A DNA stretch of 46,285 bases from a virus. A model generated the notes under the pieces. The model did no database searches, had not been told where the DNA came from, and saw nothing but the letters and a program-made list of their open reading frames with translations. The stretch covers positions 1-46,285 of the IMG/VR virus record IMGVR_UViG_3300033233_000061. One strand, written 5' to 3'. Both the position numbers and the translations under genes were made by a program. Of the stretch, positions 36,853-46,285 are shown piece after piece (the stretch's first letter is position 1; each line of letters opens with the position of its first letter).

Positions 36853-37099
36853 TCAGCACCTCCCCGCACGCTTTCGCAATCGCCGCTCTCTCGGCGGCAG
36901 CCTTGCGCCTTAGCTCGTCCGTCGTTGCCGGCGCGAACCTCCTCACCAGGTCGGCTGCGTACTCTAGCAGCTCCGGCCCATCATAGCCCAGCGCGTCACC
37001 TTGCTTGCACGCCGCCAGCAGATCGGGTGCCGCCAACACCAGGCTCCTGTAGGCGCTGGCATCAATCTCGTGTAACTCCTGCGTCTCATCCCGTTCCAT
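36839..37099 (-). CDS. Small helical protein
   Basis: An 86-residue protein starting at ATG 37099, with GGAGG six bases upstream. It reads as helices (HEIDASAYRSLVLAAPDLLAACKQGDALGYDGPELLEYAADLV in parts; ELRRKAAAERAAIAKACGEVLNG). The segment YRSLVLAAPDLLAACK resembles small phage proteins of about 80-100 residues with an LAAPDLLAAL motif that are common near replication genes and have no known role. Confidence 0.6.
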   Translation of the reverse strand: MERDETQELHEIDASAYRSLVLAAPDLLAACKQGDALGYDGPELLEYAADLVRRFAPATTDELRRKAAAERAAIAKACGEVLNGRS

Positions 37100-37658
37100 C
37101 CCGCACCTCCTCGCGTATTTTGCCCGTCTCACCCCGGCGCAGCCGGGCCAATTCGACCAACCGTTCAGCCATGCCCCTGGCAATCCATGTATCTGGTGCC
37201 TTGGGGCAAGGCGTCCGTACCTGGCTCGCAACGATGCTGGCGAACCAGTCCTGCCAACGCTTGTCCTCAACCTGCAAGGACACGCTGCAGTAGTTGCCGA
37301 TCAGGGTAACGAGATAGCCCATCTTGTAGCCCTTATCGATCACCTCCTCGATAGTCTGCGACGCCAGAATGACGTCATACAGGCGACCATGGGCCGCAAT
37401 GTAGAAATCCCAGCGACGCAGCCCAGATTCACGGACCAGGTGGTTCATGCCACACATCAGGAGCATGTTGCCCAGCAACAGCCGTTCAAGCACGGCGTCA
37501 TGGACGCGGGCAATATCCCGCCCTTGCTGTGCCGTCCGTTTCCAGGAGAGATACGGTCTAGCAGCATCCTGCCACAGCGCGGCCCCATCCCACACGGGCT
37601 GACCCGCTCCCGCCCTAAGCTGCTCCAGAACCGTCTCTCTCTTCGCTAACTCAGCCAT
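37086..37658 (-). CDS. Hypothetical protein near replication site
   Basis: A 190-residue protein from ATG 37658. It is helical with many Arg and Trp residues (AVLERLLLGNMLLMCGMNHLV, RRWDFYIAAHGRLYDVILASQTIEEVI, GYLVTLIGNYCSVSLQVEDKRWQDWF). It is the first gene after the palindromic site at 37694-37746. A role in replication is possible by position only. Confidence 0.55.
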   Translation of the reverse strand: MAELAKRETVLEQLRAGAGQPVWDGAALWQDAARPYLSWKRTAQQGRDIARVHDAVLERLLLGNMLLMCGMNHLVRESGLRRWDFYIAAHGRLYDVILASQTIEEVIDKGYKMGYLVTLIGNYCSVSLQVEDKRWQDWFASIVASQVRTPCPKAPDTWIARGMAERLVELARLRRGETGKIREEVRDGTG

Positions 37659-37853
37659 TGCCGTCTAATCTCTCTCCAAGCTGCACAGCGCACATTGCGC
37701 ACGCACAGGGGGATATATATATCCCCCTGTGCTGTGCGTGCGCAATGCAATGGGGGTTGAAGTGTGCACAGGGGGTGTGCGCACGGTGTGCGTAATGCAA
37801 TAGCCATTGAACTGGTGCCCAGGTATGCACTCCGGCCTCCTGGCGGTCTCTGG
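37659..37853. other. Candidate replication origin with 53-bp cruciform site
   Basis: This 195-bp non-coding gap follows the RecA/RepA-like ATPase gene. A perfect 28-bp palindrome at 37704-37731 has arms CACAGGGGGATATA around a TATATATA core. Outside it, ATTGCGCACG (37694-37703) pairs with CGTGCGCAAT (37737-37746), leaving a 5-base CTGTG bulge. Direct repeats TGCGCAATGCAAT (37739-37751) and TGCGTAATGCAAT (37789-37801) and a second CACAGGGGG (37767-37775) follow. Palindrome, iteron-like repeats and a helicase-like gene next door fit an origin, but an operator or RNA element is also possible. Confidence 0.5.
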
Positions 37854-39128
37854 TCATGACGCCAACCCCCATTGCCCGGTTGACAGAGTGACAACTTTGC
37901 CTTGACGCCTGAGTTCGCTCAGCCGTGCCCGCAGCTTGGATTCGTCGTTGTCGTCCAACTCCAGGGCCTCGGCCAGCTCACGGTTGCTCATGGCGCCGTT
38001 TCTCAGCGCTGAGAGGATACGGGATGCAAGAGGTGCGTGCTCAGCAAATTCAGGCGTTGCGGTCAAGTCTGTCTGGCGCAGATCAACCTGCTCAAGAACC
38101 CCATCGGCGCGCTCTTGGATGGTCATGACCAGAGCATGCTCAGGCAGGCTGCCGCGATAGTTCGCCTTGTGACACGTCAGCCGCACGGCAGTCGTGTGTT
38201 CATCGCGACGTTTCGATTCCATTTGCCAGACAATGCGGCTGGCGTTGAAGAAGTACACCGATCCAAACATCTTGTCGGCGCCAGTTGCAAACGGGCTCTT
38301 ATTGGGGTGGTGCAGACAGAGAATGCCAACATCGCGCAGTGTGCCCAGGGCCCTGAACATCGCTAGCGCTGAATCAGCCTCCTCCGGGGCCCCATTTGCA
38401 GCCATCCCCAAAGAGTCCACCACAACCATGCCGATGTTGTGTTTCCGAACCTGTGTTCGGATAGCACCGATTGACGATGCGAGCGGCGCCGCCTGCCGCT
38501 GGTGCAACACGGCCGGCGCATTAGCACGCCGGCCTTTGGCGATTGCGCGGAGACGCTCTGCATGGGTTTCGTAGTTGGTTTCCCAGTCGAGATACAACAC
38601 ATTGCGTGGCTTGCCGACACAGCGGCCAATGATGGCGTCGCCGGTTTGGATCGAGTAGGCCATGGCCAGTGCAAGCATGCTTTTGCCGCTCATGCCAGGC
38701 CCAAACAGGAGTGTTGGCCCGTCCAGGCTGATGTACGGTGACAGCAGCCAGGTATCGCCAGCTCGCGGTGAAACCGTGGCCAGATTGACTGGTTCCTCGC
38801 CAGACCGCCAGCGGTCAATAGCGAGTATGCTGACCTGGTTGAACGCAGCATGCCAGTCAAACTCCAGCCGCTCCTGCAGCGTCTTGGACAGCGATGCCCG
38901 TGTCTGGGCCGACATCAGGTTGAGGCGGCCGTACCATAGGAACTCGTCTGCTTCGGCAAACATGCTCGTGACGGTGCATTCTGCGGTTATGTCATCTTTA
39001 CCCTCCCGTATGTATTGGAGACTGATAGTGACGCCGCTGCCCGCCCAAGTAAACTCGAACCCGTCATCTATCGTGTTCACCGTTGGTGGAGGCAGCGCGG
39101 GGGCAGTCGAAGAGGTTATGGACGGCAA
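37854..39128 (-). CDS. RepA/RecA-fold ATPase (AAA_25, helicase-like)
   Basis: The 424-residue protein starts at TTG 39128 with AAGGAG seven bases upstream; the frame extends further but overlaps a promoter-leader with an inverted repeat. Walker A is GPGMSGKS (about residues 143-150) and Walker B GMVVVDSLG (about 233-241), followed by LCLHHPNKS and a sensor-like RIVWQMESKR. This is the RSF1010 RepA-like/RadA-like hexameric ATPase group. The C-terminal 70 residues are a winged helix (RILSALRNGAMSNRELAEALELD ... LRRQGKVVTL). It is the best candidate for the phage replicative helicase or loader. It is transcribed from the promoter at 39298-39326. Confidence 0.8.
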   Translation of the reverse strand: MPSITSSTAPALPPPTVNTIDDGFEFTWAGSGVTISLQYIREGKDDITAECTVTSMFAEADEFLWYGRLNLMSAQTRASLSKTLQERLEFDWHAAFNQVSILAIDRWRSGEEPVNLATVSPRAGDTWLLSPYISLDGPTLLFGPGMSGKSMLALAMAYSIQTGDAIIGRCVGKPRNVLYLDWETNYETHAERLRAIAKGRRANAPAVLHQRQAAPLASSIGAIRTQVRKHNIGMVVVDSLGMAANGAPEEADSALAMFRALGTLRDVGILCLHHPNKSPFATGADKMFGSVYFFNASRIVWQMESKRRDEHTTAVRLTCHKANYRGSLPEHALVMTIQERADGVLEQVDLRQTDLTATPEFAEHAPLASRILSALRNGAMSNRELAEALELDDNDESKLRARLSELRRQGKVVTLSTGQWGLAS

Positions 39129-39157
39129 TGAGGATCTCCTTGCATATAGACGGGGAA

Positions 39158-39238
39158 GCACAGAGCCCGACCCTTCATGCCGCCACACTCCCCTGGCAAG
39201 GACCATGGCAACACGACATGACTGGTCGGGCTCTGTGC
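39158..39238 (-). promoter_or_regulatory. 15-bp inverted repeat in leader of the ATPase gene
   Basis: GCACAGAGCCCGACC (39158-39172) is the exact reverse complement of 39224-39238, with 51 bases between. It lies in the roughly 160-base leader between the promoter and the TTG start at 39128. It could fold in RNA to control readthrough or translation, or be a two-site operator for a dimeric regulator. Confidence 0.6.
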
Positions 39239-39297
39239 TCAACTATCTTGTTGAAGGTGTGGTCTGTCATGGCCTTATCCTTGCCAGGGATACCTTG

Positions 39298-39417: not shown

Positions 39418-40269
39418 CTACGCCACTGGCTCGTTGACGGCCCCTGGCGCTGTGATGATGTTGGTGTGCCCCATGATCGCCTGGACGTAGGGTTCGGATA
39501 TGGGCAGCCCTTCTAGCTGGCGCCACGTCACCCAGAGGTGCTGCAAGAATATCTTCACCATCTTGCGCCGGGCGCGGTTGTGGATGTGCGCATCCGTAAA
39601 GTCCCAGGAACGGGCTTTGCGATGGGCAGCAGGGTGGCGGCACTCTGTAGCTACGCAGGCACACTTGGTGCAGTATGGCTCAGGGTGCTGCCGCCGCTGT
39701 TCCGCCTTCTCTTCGTAGTAGATCTCGGCGTAGATAGGCGTCTGCATGCGGATGAACTCGTCACCGATCAGATACAGCAGTGACTTGAGCCGGCGGTTGT
39801 AGGGAAGAACCTGGCCCTTCGTTGGTGCATCTATGTGCCCGTCAATGACTGCGTAGCCGCAATAGCGCCACAGTTTGGAGACAGTGTCGAAACGACCAAT
39901 GTCATCGATCTGCGCCAAGAGCTGAGCAGCCATTTTCCCTTCGCTCAGTCCACGTATAGACGTGATCCATTCCCAGATTGGGCCAGTGGTGGCCTTGGCA
40001 GCCTTAATCATCTGCCGACGGGCTGATTTTAGGGCACTATCAAGCCCGAATCCAGCGCCTTTTGCCCCACGGCCAAACGTGTCTATGAAATCCTGCTCCA
40101 TACCAGCGTCCATCTGGCACACGCCGCGCTTGATTGCGCTAATGCGGAGCAAATGGCGCTTGCGCATTTCTTCAAGCTCTTCGAAGAAGAGATACTGCTG
40201 CCAGAGCATGGACAGCTTGTGGATCTTCTGCGGACGGTCGACTTCGGCTTCCTGCAATTCATCGGACAT
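39418..40269 (-). CDS. IS110-type Transposase_20-domain protein, no DEDD domain
   Basis: A 283-residue protein starting at ATG 40269 with TAGGAGG upstream. Residues 1-95 are a helical coiled-coil-like part; residues about 105-200 carry the Transposase_20 pattern of IS110/IS116: ISIRG-LSEGKMAAQLLAQIDDIGRFDTVSKLWRYCGYAV (in two parts), YNRRLKSLLYLIGDEFIRMQTPIYAEIYYEEKA. A Cys-rich insert (CTKCACVATECRHPAAH) and NRARRKMVKIFLQHLW follow. The N-terminal DEDD RuvC-like domain of IS110 enzymes is absent, and the usual QSG serine position reads PTKG, so it is unlikely to recombine DNA. It may be a domesticated DNA- or RNA-binding protein. Confidence 0.7.
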   Translation of the reverse strand: MSDELQEAEVDRPQKIHKLSMLWQQYLFFEELEEMRKRHLLRISAIKRGVCQMDAGMEQDFIDTFGRGAKGAGFGLDSALKSARRQMIKAAKATTGPIWEWITSIRGLSEGKMAAQLLAQIDDIGRFDTVSKLWRYCGYAVIDGHIDAPTKGQVLPYNRRLKSLLYLIGDEFIRMQTPIYAEIYYEEKAEQRRQHPEPYCTKCACVATECRHPAAHRKARSWDFTDAHIHNRARRKMVKIFLQHLWVTWRQLEGLPISEPYVQAIMGHTNIITAPGAVNEPVA

Positions 40270-40280
40270 TGGTTCCTCCT

Positions 40281-40686
40281 ATTAGCGCACTCATGATATG
40301 GGTTTCACCTTTCGGCTAGCTCGCACACTAAGGCTGGGTTCCACTCACTCTTTGGCTCGCACACGTCAGCTGGGTTTCACATGGTGAGTGGCTCGCACAC
40401 CCGGCTTGGGTTTCACGGCTCTTGTGGCTCGCACAGCAATGCTGGGTTCCACATGGCGAGTGGCTTGCACTCGAAGCTTGGGTTACACGAGCACCGTGGC
40501 TCGCATGCTTCTCTTGGGTTTCACTACTAGCATGGCTCGCACCTCGGGCGTGGGTTTCACCCGGCCAATGGCTCGCACTTGCTGCCTGGGTTTCACGCGT
40601 TCGATGGCTCGCATGTAGGGCATGGGTTCCACAGTGGCCGTGGCTCGCACCGCTCAGCTGGATTTCACTAGCCGCCTGGCTCGTCT
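40281..40686. repeat. Array of 23 ten-base boxes at exact 18-bp spacing
   Basis: Box A (TGGCTCGCAC) and box B (TGGGTTTCAC) alternate, each separated by exactly eight variable bases, giving a 36-bp unit and an 18-bp half-unit. Twelve A boxes start at 40281 and every 36 bp to 40677; eleven B boxes start at 40299 and every 36 bp to 40659. A and B share the pattern TGGSTYKCAC. All 22 eight-base spacers differ. The array lies in a 420-bp gap without genes, directly upstream of the Transposase_20-like gene. It has the look of a protein-binding array such as iterons or a centromere; the spacers are far too short for a CRISPR array. Confidence 0.9.
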
Positions 40687-40689
40687 CGG

Positions 40690-41229
40690 TTATGCCATTT
40701 CCACTTCTGCCTGTACTGCCAACTGGGCTGCCAGCTCGTCAAGCTTCGCCTTGAGAGCGGCTATTGTTGCTAGCACGTCCCCACCGCTGGCGGCAATGAC
40801 TGCCAGCCGTGGCCGAGCGTGCCCGATGAGCGTCTTCAGCAAGTACTCCTCTACCCTGGCTAGGGCGTCTGGATCACTGCTTCTTACATACCCTGTGTCC
40901 TCTGTCGTTCCGCCGACGAAATCAGGCACGTCAGCTTTTCGCCCGGACCCTAGGATTATCTCCGTCGTGCACTTGTTCGCTTCGTTTATTATCTCTTCGG
41001 CCACGCCCATGCGCAGCATGATCTTGTTTGGTGGCAGGATGTCAGCCGGTGCAGTGCCAACCTCCCTTGCTGCCACTAGCATTGTCCCTATCTCGCTGGC
41101 GGTCATCTTACGGTCCGCCATTATCTCAAGGGCCTCTTTCATGCTCGCCACCGGCGGCAGGTTCCGCGCCTTACGAGCCTCATTCCAGTCGGTGACGTCA
41201 ATCGTTAGTACGACCTGCTGCTCAGCCAT
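40690..41229 (-). CDS. Hypothetical protein
   Basis: A 179-residue protein starting at ATG 41229, preceded by AGGAG and GAGGA. The N-terminus is beta (VVLTIDVTDWNEARKARNLP), the centre helical (MKEALEIMADRKMTASEIGTMLVAAREVG), and the C-terminus is a coiled coil (IAALKAKLDELAAQLAVQAEVEMA). It lies between the single-strand annealing protein and the 18-bp array. No family is recognised. Confidence 0.6.
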   Translation of the reverse strand: MAEQQVVLTIDVTDWNEARKARNLPPVASMKEALEIMADRKMTASEIGTMLVAAREVGTAPADILPPNKIMLRMGVAEEIINEANKCTTEIILGSGRKADVPDFVGGTTEDTGYVRSSDPDALARVEEYLLKTLIGHARPRLAVIAASGGDVLATIAALKAKLDELAAQLAVQAEVEMA

Positions 41230-46130: not shown

Positions 46131-46159
46131 ATTGTAGCGCCCTCCCCCATGCTTGTCAA
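46131..46159 (-). promoter_or_regulatory. Consensus sigma70 promoter of the early operon
   Basis: On the minus strand TTGACA (46154-46159 complement) is exactly 17 bases from TACAAT (46131-46136 complement). This is the best promoter of the genome; transcription should start near 46124 and run left. The -35 touches the first base of the terminal repeat, so the sites upstream of it are in bases 1-127. Confidence 0.85.
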
Positions 46160-46285
46160 GATGTTTGGAGGGCCAAAACGGGCCTGAAACACTGACAGAA
46201 ACATGACAAAAACCTGCCATAAAGATGCCATAAAGATGACATGATGTTGTAAATGCCATTGTGCAAGAGTCTGTACATGGACACT
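46159..46285. repeat. Terminal direct repeat (copy 2)
   Basis: This is identical to bases 1-127 and shows that the contig closes into a circle. It should be counted only once in the genome. Confidence 0.9.

What the first reader, a model, noticed from the sequence alone, without database searches (positions are those of the whole stretch)
39418..40269. Domesticated IS110-type Transposase_20 protein beside the array
The protein keeps the Transposase_20 half of IS110 enzymes but has no DEDD RuvC-like half, and the usual catalytic serine position appears replaced (PTKG). It has a zinc-type insert. IS110 enzymes work with a bridge RNA made from non-coding DNA next to the gene; here the neighbouring non-coding DNA is the 23-box array. 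Inference: a phage protein derived from an RNA-guided recombinase that binds the array DNA or its transcript.
Basis: partly seen in the sequence, partly recalled or inferred. Interest (0 to 1): 0.7.

Follow-up and report, generated by a model that had tools for sequence, protein, structure and literature searches.

The report
Phage TIGR-TasA RNA-guided DNA-binding system
This phage carries a small protein next to an array of short, paired guide sequences, which together form a TIGR-TasA system: an RNA-guided DNA-binding machine described in 2025, not a tamed transposase as first guessed.

Summary
The ORF at 39418-40269 (- strand, 283 aa) has weak Transposase_20 similarity and lies beside a 23-box array. 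It is not a domesticated IS110 enzyme; it is the effector of a TIGR-Tas system. NCBIfam's TIGR-Tas model scores 168 bits (cut-off 100), the IS110 model 14 (cut-off 140). The best solved relatives are PDB 9mty (TasR) and TasH. No nuclease domain was found, so it is TasA type. The array (40286-40685, - strand) has alternating edge (TGCGAGCCA) and loop (TGAAACCCA) repeats at an exact 18-nt step: 11 guide units of 36 nt with 9-nt spacers. The first edge is truncated 5'; the last (TGCG) ends just before tasA's ribosome-binding site. A scan for the array pattern alone gave 120 viral loci, of which 87 encode a Tas homologue; for 88 tas genes the nearest array was always on the same strand, median 14 nt away. 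No natural target was found in this phage or 12 relatives. One new lead: an unnamed 179-aa gene directly upstream is conserved in 8 of 12 close relatives and is unrelated to the ParB-like partner already reported. New member of a known kind.

The parts
39418..40269 (-). tasA, 283 aa: solo Nop/Transposase_20-type RNA-binding protein of the Tas family, with a Cys/His (zinc-type) insert and no nuclease domain
   Evidence: NCBIfam NF052498 168.2 bits (cut-off 100), PHROG 4285 1e-41, PDB 9mty 5e-29 and TasH 6e-9
40286..40685 (-). TIGR array: 12 edge boxes (consensus TGCGAGCCA; first GACGAGCCA truncated 5', last TGCG truncated 3') alternating with 11 loop boxes (TGAAACCCA); 9-nt spacers whose last base is a purine; 11 units of 36 nt
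   Evidence: tandem repeats of period 36/72
40677..40685 (-). first edge repeat, 5' truncated (GACGAGCCA), directly after the stop of the upstream gene
40270..40289 (-). 3'-truncated last edge (TGCG) followed by the ribosome-binding site AGGAGG of tasA
   Evidence: sequence read directly
40690..41229 (-). unnamed 179-aa gene directly upstream of the array, conserved next to array and tasA in related phages; candidate accessory gene
   Evidence: no Pfam, PHROG or credible PDB match

Best explanation
The locus is a dual-repeat TIGR-TasA system of a tailed phage. Shown: an operon-like run on the minus strand (179-aa gene, array, tasA); box D (UG) and box C (CCA) motifs in the repeats (exceptions: the last full edge reads CTA, plus the truncated end edges); and a Tas-family protein without a recognisable nuclease. 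Inferred from the tested relatives of Faure et al. 2025: the array is transcribed with its neighbours and cut in the middle of the edge repeats into eleven 36-nt tigRNAs. Each tigRNA is held by a TasA dimer. Spacer A pairs with one strand and spacer B with the other strand of an adjoining 16-18-bp DNA site, which is opened and sharply bent. Having no nuclease, TasA would act by occupying or bending the target, most likely to silence or hinder a competing mobile element or a host gene, perhaps with the upstream gene's product. The target and the purpose are not shown (family identity 0.95; blocking/silencing role roughly 0.5).
For: Family model and cut-offs; all 46 aligned relatives match the same TIGR-Tas model; best PDB relatives are 9mty and TasH, with IS621 far weaker; array anatomy matches the published rules point by point; the array pattern alone retrieves tas genes, 87 of 120 loci; the protein alone retrieves arrays; Microcystis phage Mvi-JY20 has a 34%-identical protein with TGCGAGCC/CGAAACCC boxes of the same 36-nt period directly downstream.
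Against: No terminator was found after the array, where Faure et al. describe one as typical; here the array runs straight into tasA. No target was found in the phage's own genome (at least 3 mismatches in 18 nt) and there was no enrichment in 1.13 Mb of TIGR-bearing contigs or in 12 relatives' contigs. RNA processing and DNA binding cannot be tested here. The fold was not predicted.
Confidence: 0.95

Rival explanations
1. Domesticated IS110 transposase that binds the array DNA or its transcript.
For: Shared Transposase_20-like RNA-binding domain; weak Pfam and IS621 matches.
Against: IS110 model 13.7 bits against cut-off 140, while the Tas model scores 168; no DEDD half; the array is a dual-repeat guide array, not a bridge RNA; the published evolutionary proposal runs from TasA to IS110.
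Confidence: 0.02
2. The boxes are iterons or operator sites: DNA-binding repeats for a replication or partition protein, with tasA only a neighbour.
For: Regular 18-nt spacing; an AAA-ATPase gene and a DNA clamp gene lie nearby.
Against: Two alternating repeats with UG...CCA boxes, random spacers and truncated ends are TIGR hallmarks; the array is on the same strand as tas in 88 of 88 cases and at a median 14 nt across dissimilar phages.
Confidence: 0.02
3. A TIGR-TasA system (same identity as the best explanation) whose natural job is regulating the phage's own genes.
For: TasA lacks a nuclease, so binding its own genome would not be lethal.
Against: No self-targets above shuffled controls in this phage or in relatives; mismatch-tolerant regulation is not excluded.
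Confidence: 0.12

Closest known systems
TIGR-TasA systems with dual-repeat arrays (e.g. Flavonifractor plautii FpTIGR; Faure et al., Science 2025, PMC12045711)
   Same: Solo Nop-domain protein, edge/loop repeats with UG and CCA boxes, 9-nt spacers, 36-nt units, truncated end repeats, phage context
   Different: Array lies between an unnamed 179-aa gene and tasA with no terminator; zinc-type insert in the protein
TasR (PDB 9mty) and TasH (PDB 21kl)
   Same: Homologous RNA-binding domain, E 5e-29 and 6e-9
   Different: Those carry RuvC or HNH nuclease domains; none is found here
TIGR-TasA with TasParB operon (Faure et al. 2025)
   Same: A second conserved gene in the operon; array may lie between the two genes; 10-nt repeats (here RTGCGAGCCA / GTGAAACCCA if the fixed purine is counted)
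   Different: The partner here has no ParB motif, and profile comparison with ParB-motif (DGxHR) genes found upstream of tas in other loci gives probability 0.2%
IS110 family transposases (IS621)
   Same: Distant similarity over the RNA-binding domain (E 1e-5 by family profile)
   Different: No DEDD domain, no catalytic-serine motif aligned, no bridge RNA; score far below the IS110 cut-off

Membership tests
TIGR-Tas | Protein of the Tas (Nop-domain) family | tested here: met
   NF052498 168.2 bits, cut-off 100; PDB 9mty and TasH as best relatives
TIGR-Tas | Array of two alternating 8-12-nt repeats with about 9-nt spacers, 36-nt unit | tested here: met
   11 loops and 12 edges (two truncated) at an exact 18-nt step
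TIGR-Tas | UG (box D) and CCA (box C) in both repeat types | tested here: met
   TGCGAGCCA and TGAAACCCA consensus; one full edge reads CTA
[quoted passage not shown]
   GACGAGCCA at the start, TGCG at the end
TIGR-Tas | Rho-independent terminator after the array (described as typical, not obligatory) | tested here: not met
   The array runs into the tasA ribosome-binding site; no terminator there. Close relatives with upstream arrays have the same layout, so this is not treated as a defining feature
TIGR-Tas | Processing into 36-nt tigRNAs bound by the Tas protein | not testable with these tools
   Needs RNA sequencing
TIGR-Tas | Dual-strand DNA targeting by spacers A and B | not testable with these tools
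   Target searches found nothing above controls, which neither proves nor disproves targeting
TasA subtype | No RuvC or HNH nuclease domain | tested here: met
Tas / IS110 shared fold | Predicted three-dimensional Nop/Tnp fold | not tested
   Job interrupted, then tool switched off
IS110 transposase | N-terminal DEDD RuvC-like domain | tested here: not met
   Model positions 1-198 have no counterpart
IS110 transposase | Score above the IS110 family cut-off | tested here: not met
   13.7 bits against 140

The most novel reading that the evidence does not exclude
A subtype of TIGR-TasA in which a previously unnamed, non-ParB gene directly upstream of the array is a functional partner, for example a tigRNA maturation factor or an effector recruited by the nuclease-less TasA.
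Probability: 0.4. Interest if true: 0.55.

Novelty: new member of a known kind. Interest (0 to 1): 0.4.

Why it matters
The purpose of nuclease-less TasA and the enzyme that matures tigRNAs are both stated open questions (Faure et al. 2025). This locus is a compact, textbook example in a phage contig with direct terminal repeats. Its close relatives share a module of unnamed gene, array and tasA although most of their other genes differ. That makes the unnamed gene a concrete candidate to test for maturation or effector function.

Tried and rejected
Targets: all 11 guide pairs against the window with gaps of 0-2; 1,442 unique guide pairs against 1.13 Mb of TIGR-bearing contigs with swapped, reversed and shuffled controls; guides of this phage and its relatives against 13 phage contigs. 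No enrichment in any. Exact scans of IMG/VR for single 18-nt targets were not spent, because by my rough estimate about one chance match per guide is expected in a collection of that size. Host: not identified; no similar DNA among phage records for 20500-45000, only distant capsid relatives, no tRNA genes. Structure prediction failed once and was then switched off. Searching with the single protein found nothing in IMG/VR or GTDB; the alignment of close relatives found 12 IMG/VR loci and nothing in GTDB genomes. Partner gene equals TasParB: rejected. The partner's weak PDB matches (cytochrome c6, E 0.015) were taken as chance.

Full report
What was checked. The finding is an ORF on the minus strand at 39418-40269 (283 aa, ATG start). 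The minus-strand gene order is: 179-aa gene (40690-41229), array (40286-40685), tasA (39418-40269), AAA_25 ATPase (37854-39242). A 127-bp direct terminal repeat bounds the contig, and terminase, head and beta-clamp genes show a tailed phage.

The protein. Pfam Transposase_20 is a sub-threshold hit (19.7 bits, cut-off 21.3). NCBIfam names the family outright: NF052498, TIGR-Tas, 168.2 bits against a cut-off of 100, while the IS110 model gives 13.7 against 140. (The NCBIfam model is called an endonuclease; no nuclease domain is present in this member.) The closest solved structures are 9mty (5e-29) and TasH 21kl (6e-9). 9mty is a 331-residue protein, the stated length of TaTasR in Faure et al., and that paper cites the code 9mty. 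A family profile reaches IS621 only at 1e-5. All 46 aligned relatives match the TIGR-Tas model. There is no HNH or RuvC domain by Pfam, so this is a TasA.

The array. On the minus strand, 10 full edge boxes (consensus TGCGAGCCA) alternate with 11 loop boxes (consensus TGAAACCCA) at an exact 18-nt step, plus a truncated edge at each end. Spacers are 9 nt; the last base is G in all A spacers and a purine in all B spacers, so about 8 positions vary. Across 9-nt spacer pairs from all loci, position 9 is purine-rich and the others are nearly random. Faure et al. describe alternating 8-12-nt repeats, 9-nt spacers, UG and CCA boxes, truncated end repeats and 36-nt products. All sequence features match except the terminator. 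No comparable chain appeared in 100 shuffled loci.

Independent association tests. 86 held a homologue of this protein by phmmer and 87 by profile; many of the rest were cut near the array. Of 88 tas genes the nearest array was on the same strand in 88, within 200 nt in 83, median gap 14 nt. (b) Searching by protein gave 12 loci (some overlap with the first set). Ten had an array by the same detector, ending 7-68 nt upstream of the tas reading frame. In L133 and L135 the sequence shows diverged repeats (GTTACCCA, GATACCCA) that the detector, tuned to GAAACCC, did not call. (c) Microcystis phage Mvi-JY20 carries a 34%-identical protein with TGCGAGCC/CGAAACCC boxes directly downstream, ending in a GC-rich hairpin and T run.

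Targets. The published rule is that A pairs with one strand and B with the other. From the stated 8-nt 3' overhangs and the C-5 rule I derived the site as A plus reverse-complement B, with a gap of 0-2. In the window the best hits have 3 or more mismatches in 18 nt. Across the larger sets the real pairs did no better than shuffled or swapped controls. So neither self-targeting nor mutual targeting among these phages is visible; mismatch-tolerant binding or host and plasmid targets remain possible.

A conserved neighbour. The 179-aa gene directly upstream has profile homologues directly upstream of the array in 8 of the 12 protein-found relatives (L125, L126, L129, L130, L133, L134, L135, L136) and not in L127/L128 (with equal scores, probably near-identical phages), L131 or L132. 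In the first set of loci it was found only in the five that carry close tasA relatives. It has no Pfam or PHROG match and only chance-level PDB matches. A separate set of upstream genes with a DGxHR motif and a weak RepB match probably corresponds to the ParB-like partner of Faure et al.; that is inference. It is unrelated to the 179-aa family by profile comparison (probability 0.2%). Among the window genes tested, only tasA is shared with all 12 relatives.

Mechanism. Shown: locus anatomy and family. Inferred from the tested members of the family: transcription with neighbours, maturation into 36-nt tigRNAs, TasA dimers opening and bending matched DNA. The natural role (blocking a competitor, silencing a host gene, aiding integration) is unknown; blocking or silencing is my best guess because there is no nuclease.

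Verdict. A new member of a known kind, correctly spotted as RNA-guided and IS110-related but misnamed. Interest comes mainly from the neighbour gene and from the clean locus.

Noticed in passing
40690-41229 (-): Unnamed 179-aa gene conserved directly upstream of the TIGR array and tasA in 8 of 12 close relatives; not ParB-like.
   Followed up: partly
1-127 and 46159-46285: Exact 127-bp direct terminal repeat containing 11-nt tandem repeats (consensus GAAACATGACA); the contig may be a complete phage genome.
   Followed up: partly
L113 218-1451: A very long TIGR array, 69 boxes in 1.2 kb, in another IMG/VR contig.
   Followed up: no
L133 3700-4004 and L135 3700-4004: Repeats GTTACCCA and GATACCCA around the start of the tas reading frame, apparently diverged TIGR arrays, some overlapping the reading frame itself.
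   Followed up: no
L091 2615-3442 and L036 11041-11880 (Tas proteins): A different zinc-ribbon-like insert (CxxC...CxxC) right after the GIGP motif in a group of Tas proteins.
   Followed up: no
37700-37745: Palindromic stretch CAGGGGGATATATATATCCCCCTG in the intergenic gap between the genes at 37086-37658 and 37854-39242.
   Followed up: no
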